A DNA stretch of 64,000 nucleotides from the NCBI RefSeq assembly GCF_000013445.1, contig NC_007796.1, positions 2,516,936 to 2,580,935 on the forward strand, read 5' to 3'. The stretch is from Methanospirillum hungatei JF-1 (GTDB lineage: Archaea > Halobacteriota > Methanomicrobia > Methanomicrobiales > Methanospirillaceae). This document shows, in pieces, positions 8,438 through 21,098 of the stretch. Numbering within the stretch: the first letter of the stretch is position 1; each line of letters opens with the position of its first letter. Below the pieces are notes generated by a model. The model made no database searches. It was not told where the DNA came from and saw only the letters and a program-made list of their open reading frames with translations. The translations under genes were made by a program, and so were the position numbers.

Positions 8438-11026
8438 TTAGTTCCGGCGCATTACAAAGAATGCGACTGCACCAAGACCTGCAAGGGCAACCAGTGCACC
8501 AAATCCTGGGGACTGCTGGGTCGGCTCAGGGGTTGGTGGAACGGTGGTTGGCTCAGGGGTTGGTGGAACAGTGGTCGGTTCCGGAGTCGGGGTTTCATTG
8601 ACTACCGGTGCTTCGGTTGGTGCAACAGTTGGTGCTACGGTCGGGATAGCTCCAGCCTCAACAACGTTGAAGAGTGCAGTCTCGACGGTGTTGGTGGTCA
8701 CACCAGAGACACGGACGATGTACTCATCCGGCTTGAATGTGCTTGCATCAACATTGAATGCCCACTTGTTCAGACCATCAGTGCCCTGCTGGACCTTGAC
8801 AGTTCCGGTTGCACCGCTGAACTCACCACTCTGTGACTTGTCGGTCGGCTTGAATGAGGATGAAGTTACCTCGACAAGCAGATCATTGTCGTCATACATG
8901 AGGTTGGTGGTTCCGGCGATCTCGAACTTGGATCCTACAGCCTGCTCACCGATCGGGTTGATGGTGATCTTGGGCTCCTCAACGAGGAACTGCATCTTGG
9001 TGTAGGTATCGTCGACCATTGGAGAGTTGATTGCCTGGATAAGTGCTTCTGCAGCGTCAGTTCCCTGAAGTGCTCCGGATCCGCCAAGCTTGAACACCTG
9101 GGAGTTCCGGGTCGGGTAGGAACCATAGACGTACTGTGGCTCGAGCGGGTTGTCTGGATAGACATCAAACTCGTTGTTGTACATCGGGTGCTGGACTACG
9201 ACGAAGTACTGTCCTGCATAGAGGGATGAGGTCGTTGCACTCTTGATCTCGTGCTCGAATGACATGTCATCGTTCACGGATTCTGTTGCATAGAGAACCT
9301 TGTTCTTTCCAAGAATCCAGATTGCGACACCCTTGGACGGATCGCCTTCTGCAGTACCACGGAGGTACATCTTGTCACCCTTTGCAACAACACTTGCAGA
9401 TGCGGTTGCCTGGATGTATGGCTTCTTGATAACGAGAGATACGGTGTCGTACTGTGCGTCGCTCAGGTGATCCTTGTCACGTGGAGCGCTGACAGCATAC
9501 ACGGTGTAAGTTCCTGCATCAATCTCAAGGTTGGCAGTCTGCCACTTGAACTCGTAGGTGTCGTCATCCTGAACGTCAGCCTGATCAAAGGATGCCGGCT
9601 GGTCGTTGTTGACTTCCTTACGTGGAGATTTCAGCATTCCTCCTCTGGTTGGGAGGTTTGGACCGGTAATATACAGATAGGTAACGTCAGTCTCGGAGTT
9701 GGTACCGGAGAGTTTGACTTCCTCACCAAGGTAGTAGCTCTGGTCTCCAGATGCAACGATAGTAACATCGCCCTTTTCTACCTTGACATCGACCTCATCA
9801 GACTTGTACTGACTTCCGGATTTGCGTTCTACACGGATAGTGTACTTCTTGTCCTTGGTGTCCTTGGAAGTCTTCCACTCAACGGTTCTGGTTCCACTGG
9901 AGTTCAGTTTCACAAGTGCGTAGAACTTGGTTCCGTGGAATTCTGGGTCGTCGGGGACATCCTGCTTGATGCTCTTCCCTGCTCCACCTTCATACTGGTA
10001 CTTACCGATCTCGTATGGTCCTGCTGCAGCGTCCTGCTTGACATCAACCTGTGCGTCGAGGATCATAGGTGGCTGGTCATCAGGCTGGCCGGTCATTGAG
10101 CCAGTTCCCTTTGCCCAGACATAGTACTCAGCATTTGGGACACCAGTGATGGTTACAGAGAAGGGGTTGCCACGGACTACTGTGTCCTTGTTGGCTTCGA
10201 TCTTCACCTGGTCGGTGGCGATCTGAACACTCTTTACCGCAGAGATGGTCTTCCCGGTGTAGTCTGAACCGTCGGGTGCAGTATACTGATCCTTCATGCC
10301 GTTGGCGTTACACTCTGCCCAGACGGTGTAGGTACCTGCCTTATACATGCGGTTCCCATACTTGTCCTCGGCTGCAGTGTTCCATCCATCGTTGGATGCC
10401 GGCTCAGTGTGCTTGTTGTCAGGGCTTACCCAGTACCAGAGCTGCTGGTTGACAGCAAGATTCGTCAGCGAAATTTCCTTTCCGTTGTTTCCGACAAGGT
10501 TGGTGTAGACACCACCATCTGCACTCTTTACTTTGATCTTGAAAGGTGCATCTGCAGGCTGGTACCCTGGACGGGTGATGATGCTCTGCATGTTGGTCTC
10601 AACGACAAAGTTCCCGTAGTTGCCGACCGGAATTGCCTTACCGGTGACGTCTTCATTCACGGAGCCGTCCCAGATCTTCAAGTTCAGAGAGGGTTCCTTG
10701 ATGTTGAATGCGAGCGGGCCTTTTACGCTGCCGTTCCACTGATACCAGTTGCCGGTCTTTCCGACGAAGATATCAGGAGAAACATAAAAGTTCTGTGCAT
10801 TCGTAACCTGCTGAATATCTGCAGGCTGTTCAGTCTCGGTGTTGGTACCTGGCTGCCACCATGCGATCTGGCTGGATCCACCGGTTGCTGCAGAAACATC
10901 AAGTCCCTTCTCACCAAGGAAGACTTCTCCTCCGGCTGGGATCTTGTTGATTGCTGCAGATGCCGGGAATGCAACAAGTGCAAGTGCAACAAGCACCATC
11001 ATGACAACTGCAAATTTTGCGTTCAT
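8438..11026 (-). CDS. S-layer type surface protein with PGF-CTERM anchor
   Basis: 862 residues from the ATG at 11026, chosen because GGAGG lies seven bases upstream; an in-frame ATG 33 bases earlier has no such site. A signal peptide (about 1-24, ending PASA) is followed by several Ig-like or S-layer beta domains, a Thr/Pro-rich stalk with TPEPTTVPP repeats, and the C-terminal PGF-CTERM signal SPGFGALVALAGLGAVAFF plus MRRN. That signal is cut and lipid-anchored by archaeosortase ArtA in other euryarchaea. Sequons such as WNGS and LNSS are present. A strong promoter, structured leader and terminator suggest a very abundant protein, probably the cell-surface layer beneath the sheath. Confidence 0.85.
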   Translation of the reverse strand: MNAKFAVVMMVLVALALVAFPASAAINKIPAGGEVFLGEKGLDVSAATGGSSQIAWWQPGTNTETEQPADIQQVTNAQNFYVSPDIFVGKTGNWYQWNGSVKGPLAFNIKEPSLNLKIWDGSVNEDVTGKAIPVGNYGNFVVETNMQSIITRPGYQPADAPFKIKVKSADGGVYTNLVGNNGKEISLTNLAVNQQLWYWVSPDNKHTEPASNDGWNTAAEDKYGNRMYKAGTYTVWAECNANGMKDQYTAPDGSDYTGKTISAVKSVQIATDQVKIEANKDTVVRGNPFSVTITGVPNAEYYVWAKGTGSMTGQPDDQPPMILDAQVDVKQDAAAGPYEIGKYQYEGGAGKSIKQDVPDDPEFHGTKFYALVKLNSSGTRTVEWKTSKDTKDKKYTIRVERKSGSQYKSDEVDVKVEKGDVTIVASGDQSYYLGEEVKLSGTNSETDVTYLYITGPNLPTRGGMLKSPRKEVNNDQPASFDQADVQDDDTYEFKWQTANLEIDAGTYTVYAVSAPRDKDHLSDAQYDTVSLVIKKPYIQATASASVVAKGDKMYLRGTAEGDPSKGVAIWILGKNKVLYATESVNDDMSFEHEIKSATTSSLYAGQYFVVVQHPMYNNEFDVYPDNPLEPQYVYGSYPTRNSQVFKLGGSGALQGTDAAEALIQAINSPMVDDTYTKMQFLVEEPKITINPIGEQAVGSKFEIAGTTNLMYDDNDLLVEVTSSSFKPTDKSQSGEFSGATGTVKVQQGTDGLNKWAFNVDASTFKPDEYIVRVSGVTTNTVETALFNVVEAGAIPTVAPTVAPTEAPVVNETPTPEPTTVPPTPEPTTVPPTPEPTQQSPGFGALVALAGLGAVAFFVMRRN
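8523..8590 (-). repeat. 27-bp tandem repeat encoding the Pro/Thr stalk
   Basis: Two nearly identical 27-bp units beginning at 8523 and 8550 (ggctcaggggttggtggaac in each) plus a degenerate third encode TPEPTTVPP repeats just before the PGF-CTERM anchor. Such repeats form an extended, often O-glycosylated linker; repeat number could vary between strains. Confidence 0.8.
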
Positions 11027-11085
11027 TACATGTCCTCCGAACAAACGTTCGATTCGCATCTATCCGCCGATCAGCCATTGTTATT

Positions 11086-16373: not shown

Positions 16374-17195
16374 TCAGGTGACTGATAGACCAGACTGGTA
16401 ATCAAACGCTTTTGAAAACTTGACTATCCCCCCACTTACTTTTGCCTTATCTTTCATTGAGTTTGTTGCTGATGTCCTGTTCCATGATGCCCCATCATCA
16501 CGGGCTTCCATGATATCAGCAGAAAACTCTGTTGCCACTGTCCCGATTGCATACCCCAGACCAGATACAGGATTTGGTGTGAGATCGATCTGGTATGATA
16601 GAGCGGACGGAACTGATCCATCAGCGGCTACTATCCTGGCTTTCGCTGACGTTGAATACTGGGCACTGTTTACATTGATCAGTGAACTTCGTGCCCTGAC
16701 CGTATTACAGAAGGCCGGAACTGTAGCCGAAGAACCGGATGAAAACACACACCGGCCGATACCATTCGTATCTGAATAATTCCCACCTGAGTTTATGACC
16801 AGGGATTCGTCTGCTATGAGGTGACTGCCATCGATACTCTCATATGTTACTACTTTGTCTGTTTCAAAGTTATAGAGACCCTTTGTCTGATTCCTGGAAT
16901 CAAAATCAAGAGAACTGCTCAGCATCAGATGCCCCCCGTTCGTCATCAATGAATCTTTGTAGAGTAAGGACGCCATTGTCTCGTTCGGTCCAAAGATTCG
17001 ATCTTCTAGTGTTCCGGATGAAATTGTCCAGTCGAACGAGGTATCAGTGCTGACGTATCCGATAACGTCGATCAGAGTCGTGATCGATATCTGCTGGTTT
17101 TCAGGCGTTGCATTCGGAAGAAAGTCGGCCCCTATTGGAGATGATACTAAAAATAATGCCATAACGGCAATTACAGCTATTCGTATCCAAAACAT
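16374..17195 (-). CDS. MspA-like sheath protein paralogue, short and sequon-rich
   Basis: 273 residues with a signal peptide (1-23, ending IGA). It aligns end to end with the larger protein at 19965-21098: PENQQISITTLIDV, SLDFDSRNQTKGL, GRCVFSS with PAFCNTVRARS, INVNSAQYST and a closing SGGIVKFSKAFDYQSGL. It lacks a segment of about 100 residues found in the middle of the larger one. Two Cys (149, 163) are kept with the same C-x13-C spacing. Five N-glycosylation sequons (NAT, NET, NQT, NYS, NRT) are present, against none in the larger protein. ATG 17195 follows GGTGGGTGGGG; an in-frame GTG at 17204 is the alternative. Role: probably a minor sheath or spacer-plug component (inference). Confidence 0.75.
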   Translation of the reverse strand: MFWIRIAVIAVMALFLVSSPIGADFLPNATPENQQISITTLIDVIGYVSTDTSFDWTISSGTLEDRIFGPNETMASLLYKDSLMTNGGHLMLSSSLDFDSRNQTKGLYNFETDKVVTYESIDGSHLIADESLVINSGGNYSDTNGIGRCVFSSGSSATVPAFCNTVRARSSLINVNSAQYSTSAKARIVAADGSVPSALSYQIDLTPNPVSGLGYAIGTVATEFSADIMEARDDGASWNRTSATNSMKDKAKVSGGIVKFSKAFDYQSGLSVT

Positions 17196-17235
17196 AAACC
17201 CCACCCACCAATGCTAACTGTATAGTTGTCAGGAT

Positions 17236-17258
17236 AGTATAAGTACCTAATCAGGTAC
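17236..17258 (-). promoter_or_regulatory. TATA-like element and adjoining inverted repeat before the sheath paralogue
   Basis: A TATA-like ACTTATACT (minus strand, 17236-17244) lies just downstream of the inverted repeat GTACCT-AATC-AGGTAC (17243-17258). The repeat may be an operator, or part of the 3' end of the preceding oligosaccharyltransferase gene together with the T-run at 17260-17265. Confidence 0.4.
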
Positions 17259-17282
17259 TAAAAAAGAGGAAAACTGAGATAA

Positions 17283-19805
17283 TTATGTATAGTACTTCTC
17301 TATCTGTGATTCATCAACATCAATAGTTTGGTTTGTTTCTATGATACGATAGGGCCCGGTTGTTTTGACATCATATGGGGAATTCGTAGTTGCATAGGGG
17401 AGAGTAAAGGTGCCATTCTCACTCTGCTGACGGTAGGTGAAATGACGGCCCTGGTTCGTTACGATGGGGACTTCGATGGTTCCGGTTCCGGGGATGGTGT
17501 ATCCCTTGACCCGTTCGAAGATCTTGATGTTGTTGAGGGTTACGTCGCCAGGGAAGGTTTGGGTTCCATTAGATTCATAGATGAGACGGTAGTTTTTGAG
17601 GGCTGGGGTGTCGGTGATGGGGGAGGTGTACATCAGAGATATTATCTCTGTGTTAGACCAAGGTTGAGACAAGAATTGAATTGTCTGGGTCTGATCAATG
17701 GGATACATCTTTTGAAGGAGAGGAACTTCTTTACCTGACACGATTGTGCTTTGATATTGAATAACCACACTGCCATTGGCGTGCACATACGACCCATCAT
17801 TAGCGTGAAGCTTAACAAGAGTAGTATTAAAAAATGCGGGTTTCATTCCTAGCATCGGAGTAAGTATCGAAGAGGTTTTACTTGCTCGATTATAAAAAAC
17901 AAAATAATAAGGATCTTCATCTGGTTGTGCAGGTATCCATTTTTGAATCATGGGAAAATCGTTAAATAAATACTCATTTGTAGTAATAATATATTTTCCA
18001 TGTAATTGTGAGGCGATCATTTCTGCTTGAATATTAGAATCAGCAAGGAGGAACTTAGCTACAGGAACGATATTATCCTGAAAAGGAGAGGTTGCAGGAA
18101 TTTTATGAGCCAAGACAAGGATCCAGTGCCCACTAGTCCACCAAGATATTACCGTTGATATATTTTGGGGATATGAAAAAGATTCCTTATAGATTGAATA
18201 ATAATCAGGAACATCGGTGTTATTTTGCTGAGATAACCATTTTAATGATTGAATCCATTCATCATTTATAGAATCTTTAGGAGTTTCATTTAATCCAACC
18301 TCCATCGCAACAGGAATAGAGAGAATAGTGATCATAGTTATTAAAAAACCAATGCAAAGAATACCCTTGTTATTAATAAAAATTATTTTCCAGAAAAATT
18401 TATTTTTATTATCTTTTTGAATTTTATGATGCCTTACCTGAATTTTATCGTACAGTGCGGAAAGAAATACTCCAGCCAATATGACAAAAATTTCACCACT
18501 ATAATATTGAAATCGGACAACTAGTAAACTTATTACTATATAGACTGATGCCCATATAATAACAGCTAAATTAAGTGGATTTTTCGTCCGATAAAATTGG
18601 AAACATAATATTAAGAATCCAAAACAGGAAAGAATTGCAGTAATATTAAAAACTTTTAGAAACGTGAAAATATTGGATGATTGCATCTCTTGAATTGTTA
18701 CAGAGGTACCATTTAGCGCAAAAAATCTAGTTACCATATTTGTAAAACTATTAGAAATTTCCGAATTAATTAAAATTAATAAGGCCGAGAAAACAAAAAA
18801 TATCATTAACAATATTCCTGTATAAAAAAACCTATTTTTTGCAACTATGAATCTCGATAATATATAAAGAATACCTGATTCAGCAATTATTCCTGCAGGA
18901 ATGAAAAGATGAATTATCGAATATTGCCCTAATGACCACCCTGATACCTGGATCCCGCTTAAAGCAAATAAAATTATGAACAGGCCAAAAATTATCCCAT
19001 TCATTACAAAAATCCGACTATAGTCTGATTTTTCTGTAATAAGAACTGGTAGGAAAAATGTAAATAGGGCAATAATTATTGCAATTAAGGTACAAGTAGG
19101 CATCGTCATAATAGCCAGGTAATAGAGAATGCCACAAATTATTGAAAGTACTATTACCAGATTCTGGATTTTAGAATTCCCAAAATAGTGATGTGACCAA
19201 CTCTTTGTAGATAAAGGTGCCTTCCATTTGGTTCTGTTATTATTATTAGCATTAAAGTAGGATAATAAGATAAAATAACTGATAAAAAAAGAAGAAGTTA
19301 CGACAACCTCCATTATATGATGATCGACATCACCAAAAAATGACCTGAAGAGGGTTTCTCCCCCGACAACACATATTAAGATCGCAGCGAACCAGCCGGC
19401 TTTAACATCCCAAATTATTTTACCGAACATATAACAGAGAGGAATGAGAACCATACCCAAAATGACAGGAACCCATGAAATTGCACGAATAATATCGCCC
19501 TGGATAGAAGCATTTAGTATTAAAGCAATTAAACTGCTAAACAAAGGGAATACCGGCCCCCAATCAACAATCTTACCATTTGGATAAGATAAGAATGGAT
19601 CAAACCATGAGTAATTCGGAAAATGATGAATTATTTGTTCTACTTGTCGGACGGTATACCAAGGATCTGTCGATGAGACTATGGGCTGTATCGACTCTAG
19701 GAGAAAATCCGATGGCAATAATCGAATCCATAACCCTAATATCACAAAACAAAAAACAATTATACCTAAAAGGATATTTAAACGGCTAATTGAGGACAAA
19801 TTCAT
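17283..19805 (-). CDS. aglB: AglB/STT3-type oligosaccharyltransferase
   Basis: 840 residues: about 12-13 membrane helices (1-510) and a C-terminal extracytoplasmic globular part. Donor and metal-binding motifs are seen at TDPWY (Asp 47) and GDVDHHIMEV (Asp 159, Asp 161). At the acceptor-binding site the protein reads WWTSGHW (555-561), where the family signature is WWDxG: the Asp is a Thr. AglB transfers a lipid-linked glycan to Asn of N-x-S/T outside the membrane. The gene is strongly A+T-rich over its membrane part but near the local average over the last 140 codons. It sits between two sheath-type genes on the same strand. Confidence 0.88.
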   Translation of the reverse strand: MNLSSISRLNILLGIIVFCFVILGLWIRLLPSDFLLESIQPIVSSTDPWYTVRQVEQIIHHFPNYSWFDPFLSYPNGKIVDWGPVFPLFSSLIALILNASIQGDIIRAISWVPVILGMVLIPLCYMFGKIIWDVKAGWFAAILICVVGGETLFRSFFGDVDHHIMEVVVTSSFFISYFILLSYFNANNNNRTKWKAPLSTKSWSHHYFGNSKIQNLVIVLSIICGILYYLAIMTMPTCTLIAIIIALFTFFLPVLITEKSDYSRIFVMNGIIFGLFIILFALSGIQVSGWSLGQYSIIHLFIPAGIIAESGILYILSRFIVAKNRFFYTGILLMIFFVFSALLILINSEISNSFTNMVTRFFALNGTSVTIQEMQSSNIFTFLKVFNITAILSCFGFLILCFQFYRTKNPLNLAVIIWASVYIVISLLVVRFQYYSGEIFVILAGVFLSALYDKIQVRHHKIQKDNKNKFFWKIIFINNKGILCIGFLITMITILSIPVAMEVGLNETPKDSINDEWIQSLKWLSQQNNTDVPDYYSIYKESFSYPQNISTVISWWTSGHWILVLAHKIPATSPFQDNIVPVAKFLLADSNIQAEMIASQLHGKYIITTNEYLFNDFPMIQKWIPAQPDEDPYYFVFYNRASKTSSILTPMLGMKPAFFNTTLVKLHANDGSYVHANGSVVIQYQSTIVSGKEVPLLQKMYPIDQTQTIQFLSQPWSNTEIISLMYTSPITDTPALKNYRLIYESNGTQTFPGDVTLNNIKIFERVKGYTIPGTGTIEVPIVTNQGRHFTYRQQSENGTFTLPYATTNSPYDVKTTGPYRIIETNQTIDVDESQIEKYYT

Positions 19806-19934
19806 TTCTATCTCAATTATTTTTCATCTACAACATCATTAAATCATCTTTCGATGAGTGCATTCTCTAACCAAAAATCAGACTCATTCGTTGGAAGAAT
19901 TACAGATAATGGATGTAATAATTCCAGATATGGT

Positions 19935-19942
19935 AAAAAAAA
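19935..19942 (-). terminator. T-run terminator after the sheath protein gene
   Basis: Eight A on the plus strand (eight T on the minus strand) 22 bp beyond the stop of the sheath protein gene. It would end a highly expressed one-gene transcript before aglB. Confidence 0.65.
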
Positions 19943-19964
19943 GATTGAATTATAGATTTACTAA

Positions 19965-21098
19965 TTAGAAAGTAAACCCTGATTCGTAGTTAAAGGTCTT
20001 CTGGAAGTTCTTGATACCGCCAGTGACGGATGCAGTGTCCTTCCAGTTGTTGGTTGCGGATGGAACCTGGTTCTTGCCACGTGCTTCCATGATGGAGCCG
20101 CCGAAGAGGGTCTTTACAGTTCCGTCTGCAAATCCACTGCCAGAGTTGCTGTCAGGGGTGACGGCGATCTGGTAGTTGAGTGCTGCTGGGATATCACCGG
20201 TTGCTGCTACTGCACGTGCTGCACCCTTGGTTGAAACCTGTGCACTGTTGATGTTTACAAGTTCGCTCTTTGCCTTGACGACATTACAGAATGCCGGGAA
20301 GTACTCGGTAGATGCTGCTGCAAAGACACAGCGGATGCTGTCTGCAGTCTTCTCCCAGTTACCTGCTACATCAAGAGTCCACTCTTCTGCACCAACGAGG
20401 TGTGCACCCTCGGTGCTTGCATAGGTCAGAACCTTCTCAACTTCGAGGTTGTTCAGGCCTTTGCCCTTGTTGCGTGAATCAAAGTCAATGTTCTCATTGA
20501 GTGCGAGTTTACCACCGTTTGAACGGAGGGTGTCAGTCCAGGTCAGAATTGCGATCTCTTCACCTGCATAAAGCTTGCTGTCGTGAATTGCTCCCGGAAT
20601 CTTCACTGTGCTGTCTGCATAGTTAAAGTTTGCCTCGATATATGCTAAGTAATTTGCATAAGTGGTGCTACCGAATAATTCTGGATCCATGTAGTTTGTG
20701 TTGACATCTACTGGAACATTTAATTTAGTAAGGTAGAAAACTCCACCGATGTTCTTGTATGATAAGTAATCAGAGGCTGCATTTCCATACAGATTTGCCC
20801 ACTCAGTTGCTTTGGTCTGAAGATAATTAAGCTGTGCAGGGGTCAAAACAACTGCATTGCCTGCAAGGGCATCAAAGTTGTTATTATCAAAGATTACTCC
20901 CTCTGCAACAGAATTCTGAGAGTCAATGGTCCACTGCATTTCGCTTTCCTGGCTGACTGCGCCAGTGACATCGATAAGGGTGTCAATGGTAAAGATCTGG
21001 TTCTCTGGAACCTGCTGCGGGAGCCGGTCTGCAGATGCAAATCCGGTGACTGCAACAAGTGCAACCAGTGCAAGAACAATTGCGTATCCGAACTTCAC
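19965..21098 (-). CDS. mspA: Major sheath protein, MspA-like
   Basis: 377 residues (about 40 kDa) with a clean signal peptide (1-23, ending ASA). Size, signal peptide and amino-acid composition fit MspA, the amyloid-forming protein of the Methanospirillum sheath; I recognise it from that description, not from a search. It has just two Cys (257, 271), Gly/Ala/Asn/Thr-rich beta-prone sequence, and no N-x-S/T sequon. Residues about 72-180 form an insert missing from the paralogue at 16374-17195. The start is GTG 21098, with GGAGG eight bases before it. A TATA box, a short leader with a perfect stem-loop, and an oligo-T terminator point to a strongly expressed monocistronic gene. Confidence 0.78.
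   Translation of the reverse strand: MKFGYAIVLALVALVAVTGFASADRLPQQVPENQIFTIDTLIDVTGAVSQESEMQWTIDSQNSVAEGVIFDNNNFDALAGNAVVLTPAQLNYLQTKATEWANLYGNAASDYLSYKNIGGVFYLTKLNVPVDVNTNYMDPELFGSTTYANYLAYIEANFNYADSTVKIPGAIHDSKLYAGEEIAILTWTDTLRSNGGKLALNENIDFDSRNKGKGLNNLEVEKVLTYASTEGAHLVGAEEWTLDVAGNWEKTADSIRCVFAAASTEYFPAFCNVVKAKSELVNINSAQVSTKGAARAVAATGDIPAALNYQIAVTPDSNSGSGFADGTVKTLFGGSIMEARGKNQVPSATNNWKDTASVTGGIKNFQKTFNYESGFTF

What the first reader, a model, noticed from the sequence alone, without database searches (positions are those of the whole stretch)
16374..21098. Opposite sequon content of the two sheath-type proteins
Reading every Asn in the 377-residue protein I find no N-x-S/T, though it is Asn- and Ser/Thr-rich. 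The 273-residue paralogue has five (NAT, NET, NQT, NYS, NRT). Loss of all sequons from an amyloid that must pack tightly, and their gain in a paralogue beside AglB, suggests that glycosylation decides which of the two can enter the amyloid lattice.
Basis: partly seen in the sequence, partly recalled or inferred. Interest (0 to 1): 0.72.

Follow-up and report, generated by a model that had tools for sequence, protein, structure and literature searches.

The report
Sheath amyloid purged of sugar-attachment sites
The protein that builds the tough outer tube of a methane-making microbe has had its sugar-attachment signals selected away, while its shorter relatives keep them, and the sugar-attaching enzyme encoded between the two genes has, in most related species, lost the part that reads those signals.

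Summary
MspA/SH (19965-21098, -) has 0 N-x-S/T sequons against 4.9 expected (P 0.004). The short paralogue (16374-17204, -) has 5 against 3.4, which is not an excess. Across the genus, 11 capped MspA-type proteins hold 4 sequons against 47 expected, while D-x-S/T, Q-x-S/T, reversed and N-P-S/T motifs are not depleted. Secreted-type proteins of the same genome are sequon-rich (1.3x). So the loss is real, specific and conserved.

The paralogue's sequons are mostly retained rather than gained, and all lie in predicted loops. Two congeners lacking any capped form carry sequons in nearly all their sheath-type proteins. A nested capless class has sequons exactly where its cap was. Cap and glycans look like alternative outer coverings, within this genus only.

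The adjacent AglB cannot be read as the paralogue's glycosyltransferase. In one fast-evolving clade at this locus, 4 of 5 copies lost the WWDYG aspartate that reads Ser/Thr (WWTSG, SWEYG, WWNFG, WWGFG), against 1 of 106 other AglBs of the order, while all tested catalytic residues are kept. Such changes abolish activity in Campylobacter PglB. The locus pairs a sequon-purged amyloid with an oligosaccharyltransferase probably blind to standard sequons.

The parts
19965..21098 (-). MspA / SH (Mhun_2271 in print), major sheath amyloid protein, 377 aa, GTG start; no N-glycosylation sequon
   Evidence: identity with Mhun_2271/WP_011449234.1 from PMC6242892 and PMC11641113 passages and size/genome match; not matched by accession here
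20565..20927 (-). hypervariable stretch of MspA (aa 58-178) holding the outward-facing cap domain; 33-35% identical between JF-1 and G177 at aa 81-160 while flanks are 72-100%
   Evidence: windows; alignment; cap faces the exterior per PMC10593813
17283..19805 (-). AglB-type oligosaccharyltransferase paralogue (840 aa) between the two sheath-type genes
   Evidence: TIGR04154 566.6 bits (cut-off 450); PF02516/PF22627/PF18079; fold match 7e9s TM 0.74
18129..18143 (-). WWTSG in place of WWDYG (aa 555-559): the Asp that reads the +2 Ser/Thr is Thr
17958..17960 (-). Asp616 at the position aligned with the pocket lysine (Lys618 of A. fulgidus AglB)
19665..19667 (-). Asp47 of the first DxD motif, kept
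19317..19325 (-). Asp161-His162-His163 of the second metal motif, kept
18687..18689 (-). Glu373 of the TIxE motif, kept
17286..17606 (-). AglB aa 734-840: 91-97% identical to G177, against 15-78% over aa 1-733 (mosaic gene)
16374..17204 (-). short capless SH paralogue, 276 aa, five sequons
17106..17114 (-). sequon NAT31 (site A, +3 Pro)
   Evidence: loop in model
16977..16985 (-). sequon NET74, in the loop where MspA carries its cap
16884..16892 (-). sequon NQT105
16773..16781 (-). sequon NYS142, conserved as NY[ST] in 7 of 7 orthologues
16473..16481 (-). sequon NRT242 (site B), conserved in 7 of 7 orthologues

Best explanation
MspA and its capped relatives have been purged of N-glycosylation sequons by selection, so that canonical AglBs cannot glycosylate them during export (depletion shown; reason inferred). 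Capless SH relatives in the genus keep sequons, or have them where a cap was, and these lie in loops, several on the cap side (loops predicted; cap side inferred from strand order). A ~100-residue hypervariable cap and N-glycans are thus read as two alternative coverings of the sheath's outer face in Methanospirillum. The AglB between the genes does not serve the paralogue's sequons: it kept the tested catalytic residues but, in four of five species, lost the Asp of the Ser/Thr-reading pocket (shown). It is therefore either an oligosaccharyltransferase with a changed acceptor rule or one no longer acting on peptides (inferred). Other AglBs of the genome, with intact WWDYG, would glycosylate the capless paralogues and the S-layer (inferred).
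For: Depletion: 4 vs 47.4 in 11 capped proteins, against D-x-S/T 56/53.4, Q-x-S/T 44/23.3, S/T-x-N 37/46.9, N-P-S/T 2/1.6, N-x-x-S/T 45/48.7. Cap only 2 vs 13.4, rest 1 vs 32.8. Background: 61 secreted-type JF-1 genes 178 vs 137, 190 without TM 271 vs 252. Site A/B occupancy: capped 0/11 and 0/11, short 5/7 and 7/7, G163/G167-type 17/18 and 17/18. Cap-to-sequon reversal: three capless proteins (L008, L071, L073) group with the capped ones (95/95), keep the IHD-KL stub and carry NG[TS] and NRT at the cap site. AglB: Asp lost in 4 of 5 locus copies against 1 of 106 others (Fisher 4e-6); metal ligands, TIxE Glu and R431 kept; the five form one clade with sisters that keep WWDYG; near-universal columns that deviate concentrate at 546-591 (9 of 14 vs 12 of 62, P 0.0017). 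The pocket role of WWD and the inactivity of CjPglB W457S, D459V and D459N(+S492C) are from PMC3703281, PMC8342417 and PMC3527161. The two most transcribed SH genes of M. hungatei are Mhun_2271 and Mhun_1947 (PMC11576556); the capped, sequon-free L007 is probably Mhun_1947 (inference from position).
Against: Sequon avoidance is not tied to the cap outside the genus. Capless SHs of genus g5 are depleted too (16 vs 63.6). Of five proteins of other genera with caps of 80 residues or more in the printed part, three carry 2-3 sequons. Within the genus, 4 of 11 capped proteins have one sequon; a partial capped MspA (STE_32) has two and a partial capped form in G201 has one. The AU test does not reject the capped proteins as one clade without the capless class (p 0.169). 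G182's locus AglB keeps WWDYG. No glycoproteomic data were seen. The 11 proteins are related, so shuffle P values overstate independence.
Confidence: 0.55

Rival explanations
1. One reading: N-glycosylation decides which paralogue can enter the amyloid lattice; the glycosylated short protein is kept out or caps growth.
For: Strong, specific sequon purge in the capped proteins. PMC11576556 names Mhun_2271 and Mhun_1947 as the main transcribed SHs, so the short paralogue is probably not a main sheath component. Sequon avoidance, weaker, runs through the whole family (rest 135/237.6).
Against: G163 and G167 have no capped SH (36 of 36 and 47 of 47 candidates scored, none covers the cap), yet 17 of 18 sampled SHs carry sequon A and 17 of 18 sequon B. 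The five sequons lie in predicted loops, none in strands. The exterior cap is purged as well.
Confidence: 0.15
2. The locus AglB is an active oligosaccharyltransferase with a rewritten acceptor rule: it modifies non-sequon Asn residues, most likely in the co-varying MspA cap, so MspA shuns N-x-S/T to stay out of reach of the canonical AglBs while being served by its own.
For: Catalytic residues intact, ORFs intact in five species. Cap and AglB body are both hypervariable while the rest of the locus is conserved. A published docking suggests Asn157 in the cap as a possible glycosylation site, and it lies in no sequon (PMC10593813). Pocket remodelling is concentrated around WWDYG.
Against: The replacements differ in every species (T, E, N, G), as expected for relaxation rather than one new rule. 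G182 keeps WWDYG with a sequon-free MspA. Two loci with an MspA-type gene lack the AglB (STE_32/G202; G201:C5). Comparable PglB changes abolish activity.
Confidence: 0.2
3. The locus AglB has drifted after its sheath substrate lost its sequons: it is non-functional on peptides, or only consumes lipid-linked oligosaccharide, and is being replaced or lost.
For: Asp lost at least twice with different residues; fast branches (0.46-0.5 vs 0.05 for canonical AglBs of the same pair); JF-1/G177 dS 1.53 vs 0.34 for the canonical AglB; gene absent between MspA and the short SH in STE_32. LLO hydrolysis without peptide is known for OSTs (PMC8342417).
Against: Five intact ORFs of 812-846 aa; every tested metal ligand kept; the last ~107 residues are strongly conserved; dN/dS 0.06-0.27 where calculable, on saturated dS.
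Confidence: 0.3
4. The sequon difference is a by-product of composition or beta-structure, without selection on glycosylation.
For: Shuffles ignore structural context; Asn and Ser/Thr are unevenly placed in beta proteins; NN and N-[ST] counts vary between groups.
Against: N-P-S/T, D-x-S/T, Q-x-S/T, reversed and N-x-x-S/T motifs are not depleted to any like degree in the same proteins, and the hypervariable cap is depleted too.
Confidence: 0.07

Closest known systems
MspA / SH sheath amyloid of Methanospirillum hungatei (Mhun_2271; PMC6242892, PMC10593813)
   Same: The 377-aa gene is this protein: size, genome, signal peptide and family expansion agree; the cap faces outwards.
   Different: The sequon purge, the cap-versus-sequon pattern and the syntenic AglB were not found in the passages read; PMC10593813 lists Thr86, Ser144 and Asn157 as possible glycosylation sites, none in a sequon.
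AglB / STT3 / PglB oligosaccharyltransferases (A. fulgidus AglB-L, 3waj, 5gmy, 7e9s)
   Same: Whole-length homology (E 4e-48), fold (TM 0.74), DxD, DHH, TIxE and Arg motifs.
   Different: WWD Asp lost in 4 of 5 locus copies and pocket Lys not conserved; the rule that paralogues of one organism share one Ser/Thr-pocket type (PMC3703281) does not seem to hold here.
C. jejuni PglB WWDYG mutants (PMC3527161)
   Same: W457S and D459N/V correspond to natural residues or positions here (Ser in G177, Asn in M. stamsii; Thr, Glu and Gly at the Asp in the others).
   Different: Those are laboratory loss-of-function mutants; here the changes are fixed in an intact gene next to the sheath genes.
Diverse cap domains of archaeal sheath proteins (PMC11576556)
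   Same: Caps vary or are absent on a conserved amyloid core.
   Different: The link between cap state and sequon content was not found in the passages read there.

Membership tests
AglB/STT3 oligosaccharyltransferase | Family profile over its cut-off | tested here: met
   TIGR04154 566.6 (cut-off 450); PF02516, PF22627 and PF18079
AglB/STT3 oligosaccharyltransferase | Membrane plus globular fold of AglB | tested here: met
   AlphaFold pLDDT 86, pTM 0.86; 7e9s TMq 0.74, E 9.6e-39
AglB/STT3 oligosaccharyltransferase | DxD/DHH metal ligands and TIxE Glu | tested here: met
   D47, D161, H162, H163, E373 and R431 in 5 of 5 locus copies
AglB/STT3 oligosaccharyltransferase | WWDYG sequon-reading motif | tested here: not met
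   WWTSG here; SWEYG, WWNFG, WWGFG, WWDYG in the other four locus copies. Homologue of AglB; sequon OST activity not claimed
AglB/STT3 oligosaccharyltransferase | Glycan transfer to N-x-S/T | not testable with these tools
   needs enzyme assay
SH/MspA sheath amyloid (377-aa protein) | Homology to, or identity with, the proteomically identified sheath protein | tested here: inconclusive
   size 377 aa, strain-specific genome size and an M. stamsii orthologue at 66-69% agree with PMC6242892; accession not compared
SH/MspA sheath amyloid (short paralogue) | SH beta-core homology | tested here: met
   48% identity over the core; long beta strands in model, pLDDT 79
SH/MspA sheath amyloid (short paralogue) | Assembles into the sheath | not testable with these tools
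   needs sheath proteomics
N-glycoprotein (short paralogue) | Occupied sequon | not testable with these tools
   needs glycoproteomics

The most novel reading that the evidence does not exclude
A sheath-dedicated oligosaccharyltransferase has abandoned the N-x-S/T code: with catalytic site intact and Ser/Thr pocket rebuilt, it glycosylates non-sequon asparagines in the hypervariable cap of an amyloid that has purged all standard sequons, giving the cell two separate N-glycosylation codes.
Probability: 0.18. Interest if true: 0.9.

Novelty: new variant of a known kind. Interest (0 to 1): 0.62.

Why it matters
The WWDYG motif is described as strictly conserved in oligosaccharyltransferases, and paralogues of one organism are said to share one pocket type. 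A natural clade that drops the sequon-reading Asp repeatedly while keeping the catalytic residues, always beside the gene of a nearly sequon-free amyloid, gives a direct handle on whether the N-x-S/T rule can be left behind. The near-complete, motif-specific purge of sequons from a functional amyloid is strong sequence evidence that N-glycosylation and this lattice conflict, and the cap/sequon pattern makes a testable statement about what covers the outside of archaeal sheaths.

Tried and rejected
Considered and rejected: that the paralogue is sequon-enriched (5 vs 3.4, P 0.24; 28 vs 22.5 in 7 orthologues). That a cap always excludes sequons (capped SHs of other genera carry them). That the WWD change is an alignment error (seen directly in the sequence, same column in 111 proteins). 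That AglB proximity is general for SH genes: it holds in 5 Methanospirillum genomes; MspA and the short SH are adjacent without AglB in STE_32, and the G201:C5 capped gene has none within 3.4 kb on the side that the contig holds. That viral SH-like proteins test the lattice idea: one hit only, with two sequons, so uninformative. A look for a new acceptor motif in MspA gave nothing convincing. Foldseek with the short SH model gave no meaningful PDB match (TM at most 0.21).

Limits of the counts: one search's 11 capped proteins leave out L055 (0 sequons vs 3.3), dropped as near-identical to L007 at its C-terminus, and the partial protein of STE_32 (2 sequons); the partial G201:C5 protein (1) and the full G201:C69 protein (0) were read later. 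One search is mechanical gene calling on 20 stretches of 20 kb plus the window; 325 genes, of which 287 fell into the three classes reported. The 111 AglBs are those of at least 650 aa among loci taken from the best-scoring matches; the genomes were not exhausted. Of the 50 AglB cores (all keep Asp), 30 are best matches, some already among the 111, and 20 come from other families of the phylum. Printed output was cut in the middle. No Rfam, tandem-repeat or promoter search was made because nothing pointed to RNA or regulation.

Papers: PMC6242892, PMC10593813 (one whole section plus passages), PMC11576556, PMC11641113, PMC3703281, PMC8342417, PMC3527161, PMC4287180: passages only; other papers: search listings only. 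'Not found in print' rests on those searches alone.
Full report
WHAT IS THERE. The window lies in a 3,544,738-base single-contig genome. The 377-aa gene at 19965-21098 (-) matches in size the major sheath amyloid MspA/SH (Mhun_2271, WP_011449234.1) of Methanospirillum hungatei JF-1 described in PMC6242892 and PMC10593813. Downstream on the same strand lie an AglB-type oligosaccharyltransferase (17283-19805) and a short SH paralogue (16374-17204), with gaps of 159 and 78 bases.

OBSERVATION. MspA has 33 Asn and 56 Ser/Thr but no sequon (expected 4.87 in the mature part, P 0.004). The paralogue has the five sequons listed, expected 3.43. The four syntenic orthologues of MspA have 0, 0, 0 and 1; those of the short protein, JF-1 included, 3-5 in 7 of 7.

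IS IT MORE THAN CHANCE? In 11 complete, distinct capped SH proteins of the genus, N-x-S/T occurs 4 times against 47.4 expected. In the same proteins D-x-S/T is 56/53.4, Q-x-S/T 44/23.3, S/T-x-N 37/46.9, N-x-x-S/T 45/48.7, and N-P-S/T, which cannot be glycosylated, 2/1.6. The hypervariable cap alone has 2 against 13.4 and the rest 1 against 32.8; one further sequon spans the cut. A sample of the same genome gives 178 vs 137 in 61 secreted-type genes and 271 vs 252 in 190 genes without a membrane segment. The depletion is therefore specific to the motif that AglB reads. Weaker depletion runs through the family: 135 vs 237.6 in 109 other SHs, 16 vs 63.6 in 37 from one genus. The proteins are related, so the P values are not those of independent draws; the poorly conserved caps are the nearest to independent.

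GAIN OR LOSS? Two positions recur in capless proteins: site A (LPN[AQ]TPENQ at the mature N-terminus) and site B (WN[KRQ]T before SATN). They are filled in 0 and 0 of 11 capped proteins, 5 and 7 of 7 short locus proteins, 17 and 17 of 18 capless proteins of G163/G167, and 24 and 30 of 109 others. In capped proteins site A reads LPxQVPENQ with x = Q, S, G, Y, T or H. So the capped clade lost sequons. Site A has Pro at +3, which disfavours glycosylation (PMC8342417), so its conservation may be structural. In a tree built without cap and sequon columns, a class of three capless proteins (one in JF-1, L008) groups with the capped proteins (95/95), still bears the IHD-KL stub that follows the cap, and has NG[TS] and NRT exactly there. 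The simplest reading is a lost cap and sequons in its place. The AU test does not exclude the capped proteins as a clade of their own (p 0.169).

DOES GLYCOSYLATION GATE THE LATTICE? In the model of the short paralogue (pLDDT 79, pTM 0.72) all five sequon Asn lie outside strands; 9 of its 15 mature Asn do, so this alone is weak. N74 sits in the loop that holds the cap in MspA; by strand order N142 and N242 are on the same side (inference). Genomes G163 and G167, with all 36 and 47 candidates scored, show no SH covering the cap, so their sheaths should be built from capless, sequon-bearing SHs. PMC6242892 reports M. lacunae sheaths to be even more stable; that these genomes are M. lacunae or close kin is my inference. 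For the gate model, the most transcribed SHs of M. hungatei are Mhun_2271 and Mhun_1947 (PMC11576556), the second probably the other sequon-free capped protein L007. I favour cap and glycan as alternative outer coverings in this genus over a lattice gate; outside the genus the pattern fails in 3 of 5 capped proteins printed.

THE AGLB IN BETWEEN. It is an AglB by profile (TIGR04154 566.6 against 450), by alignment to A. fulgidus AglB (E 4e-48) and by fold (7e9s TM 0.74). Its WWDYG reads WWTSG. The other four syntenic copies read SWEYG (G177), WWNFG (M. stamsii), WWGFG (G171) and WWDYG (G182). Among 106 other distinct AglBs of the order the Asp is kept in 105; the exception is a divergent JF-1 STT3 homologue, L005. 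Twenty AglB cores from other families of the phylum all keep it. D47, D161, H162, H163, E373, R431 and the second Trp and Gly of the motif are kept in all five; the Lys column of the DK motif is Asp (JF-1), Asp (G177), Val (M. stamsii), Ile (G171) and Ile (G182), and is Lys in 75 of 106 others. Of 76 near-universal columns the locus copies deviate at 9-13, the 105 other AglBs at a median of 0 and a maximum of 6; deviations crowd into residues 546-591. The WWD residues and the second DK/MI residue form the Ser/Thr +2 pocket (PMC3703281, PMC8342417), and PglB W457S, D459V and D459N(+S492C) were inactive (PMC3527161). The five copies form one clade whose sisters keep WWDYG, so the Asp was lost at least twice and four different residues stand in its place.

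MOSAIC LOCUS. Between JF-1 and G177 the canonical AglB is 91% identical (dS 0.34) and the short SH 89% (dS 0.45), but the locus AglB is 56% (dS 1.53). Its last 107 residues are 91-97% identical, the first 733 only 15-78%; the MspA cap is about 33-35% identical while its flanks are 72-100%. The AglB is absent between MspA and the short SH in the STE_32 MAG. Divergent alleles seem to have been exchanged here; a virus-driven cause is conceivable but untested.

VERDICT. Observation confirmed and strengthened. Whether that enzyme has a new acceptor rule (my estimate 0.2), is peptide-blind or decaying (0.3), or still reads sequons weakly is open. Searches of the held library listed no paper on these points, which covers open-licence papers only and rests on listings, not on reading each paper.

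Noticed in passing
window 8438-11059 (-): S-layer protein (NF041431, DUF3821, PGF-CTERM; Mhun_2263 in print by inference) about 5 kb from the short SH; 3 sequons against 6.9 expected.
   Followed up: partly
L005 (G000:C1 about 3425424-3426695): A divergent STT3 homologue of the same genome with PWVYG for WWDYG and weak similarity to AglB (94.6 bits).
   Followed up: no
L128, L129, L132, L141, L147, L203: AglBs of other genera with the first Trp of WWDYG replaced (LWDYG, LWDSG, SWDYG) but Asp kept; these genomes also carry SH genes.
   Followed up: no
window 17286-17606: The last 107 residues of the locus AglB are far more conserved between species than the rest, suggesting recombination within the gene.
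   Followed up: partly
window 20565-20927: The MspA cap is hypervariable while signal peptide and parts of the beta core are conserved even at synonymous sites.
   Followed up: partly
L322 (G201:C159, about 736-1134, -): An orphan C-terminal AglB fragment (similarity over about 100-130 aa) in another genome of the genus.
   Followed up: no
G167 and G163 genomes: Very large expansion of capless SH genes (44 and 30 match segments), several in tandem.
   Followed up: no
L380 (IMG/VR contig): SH-like protein (ORF 309 aa) on a viral contig with site A sequon NQT and one more, NAT.
   Followed up: no
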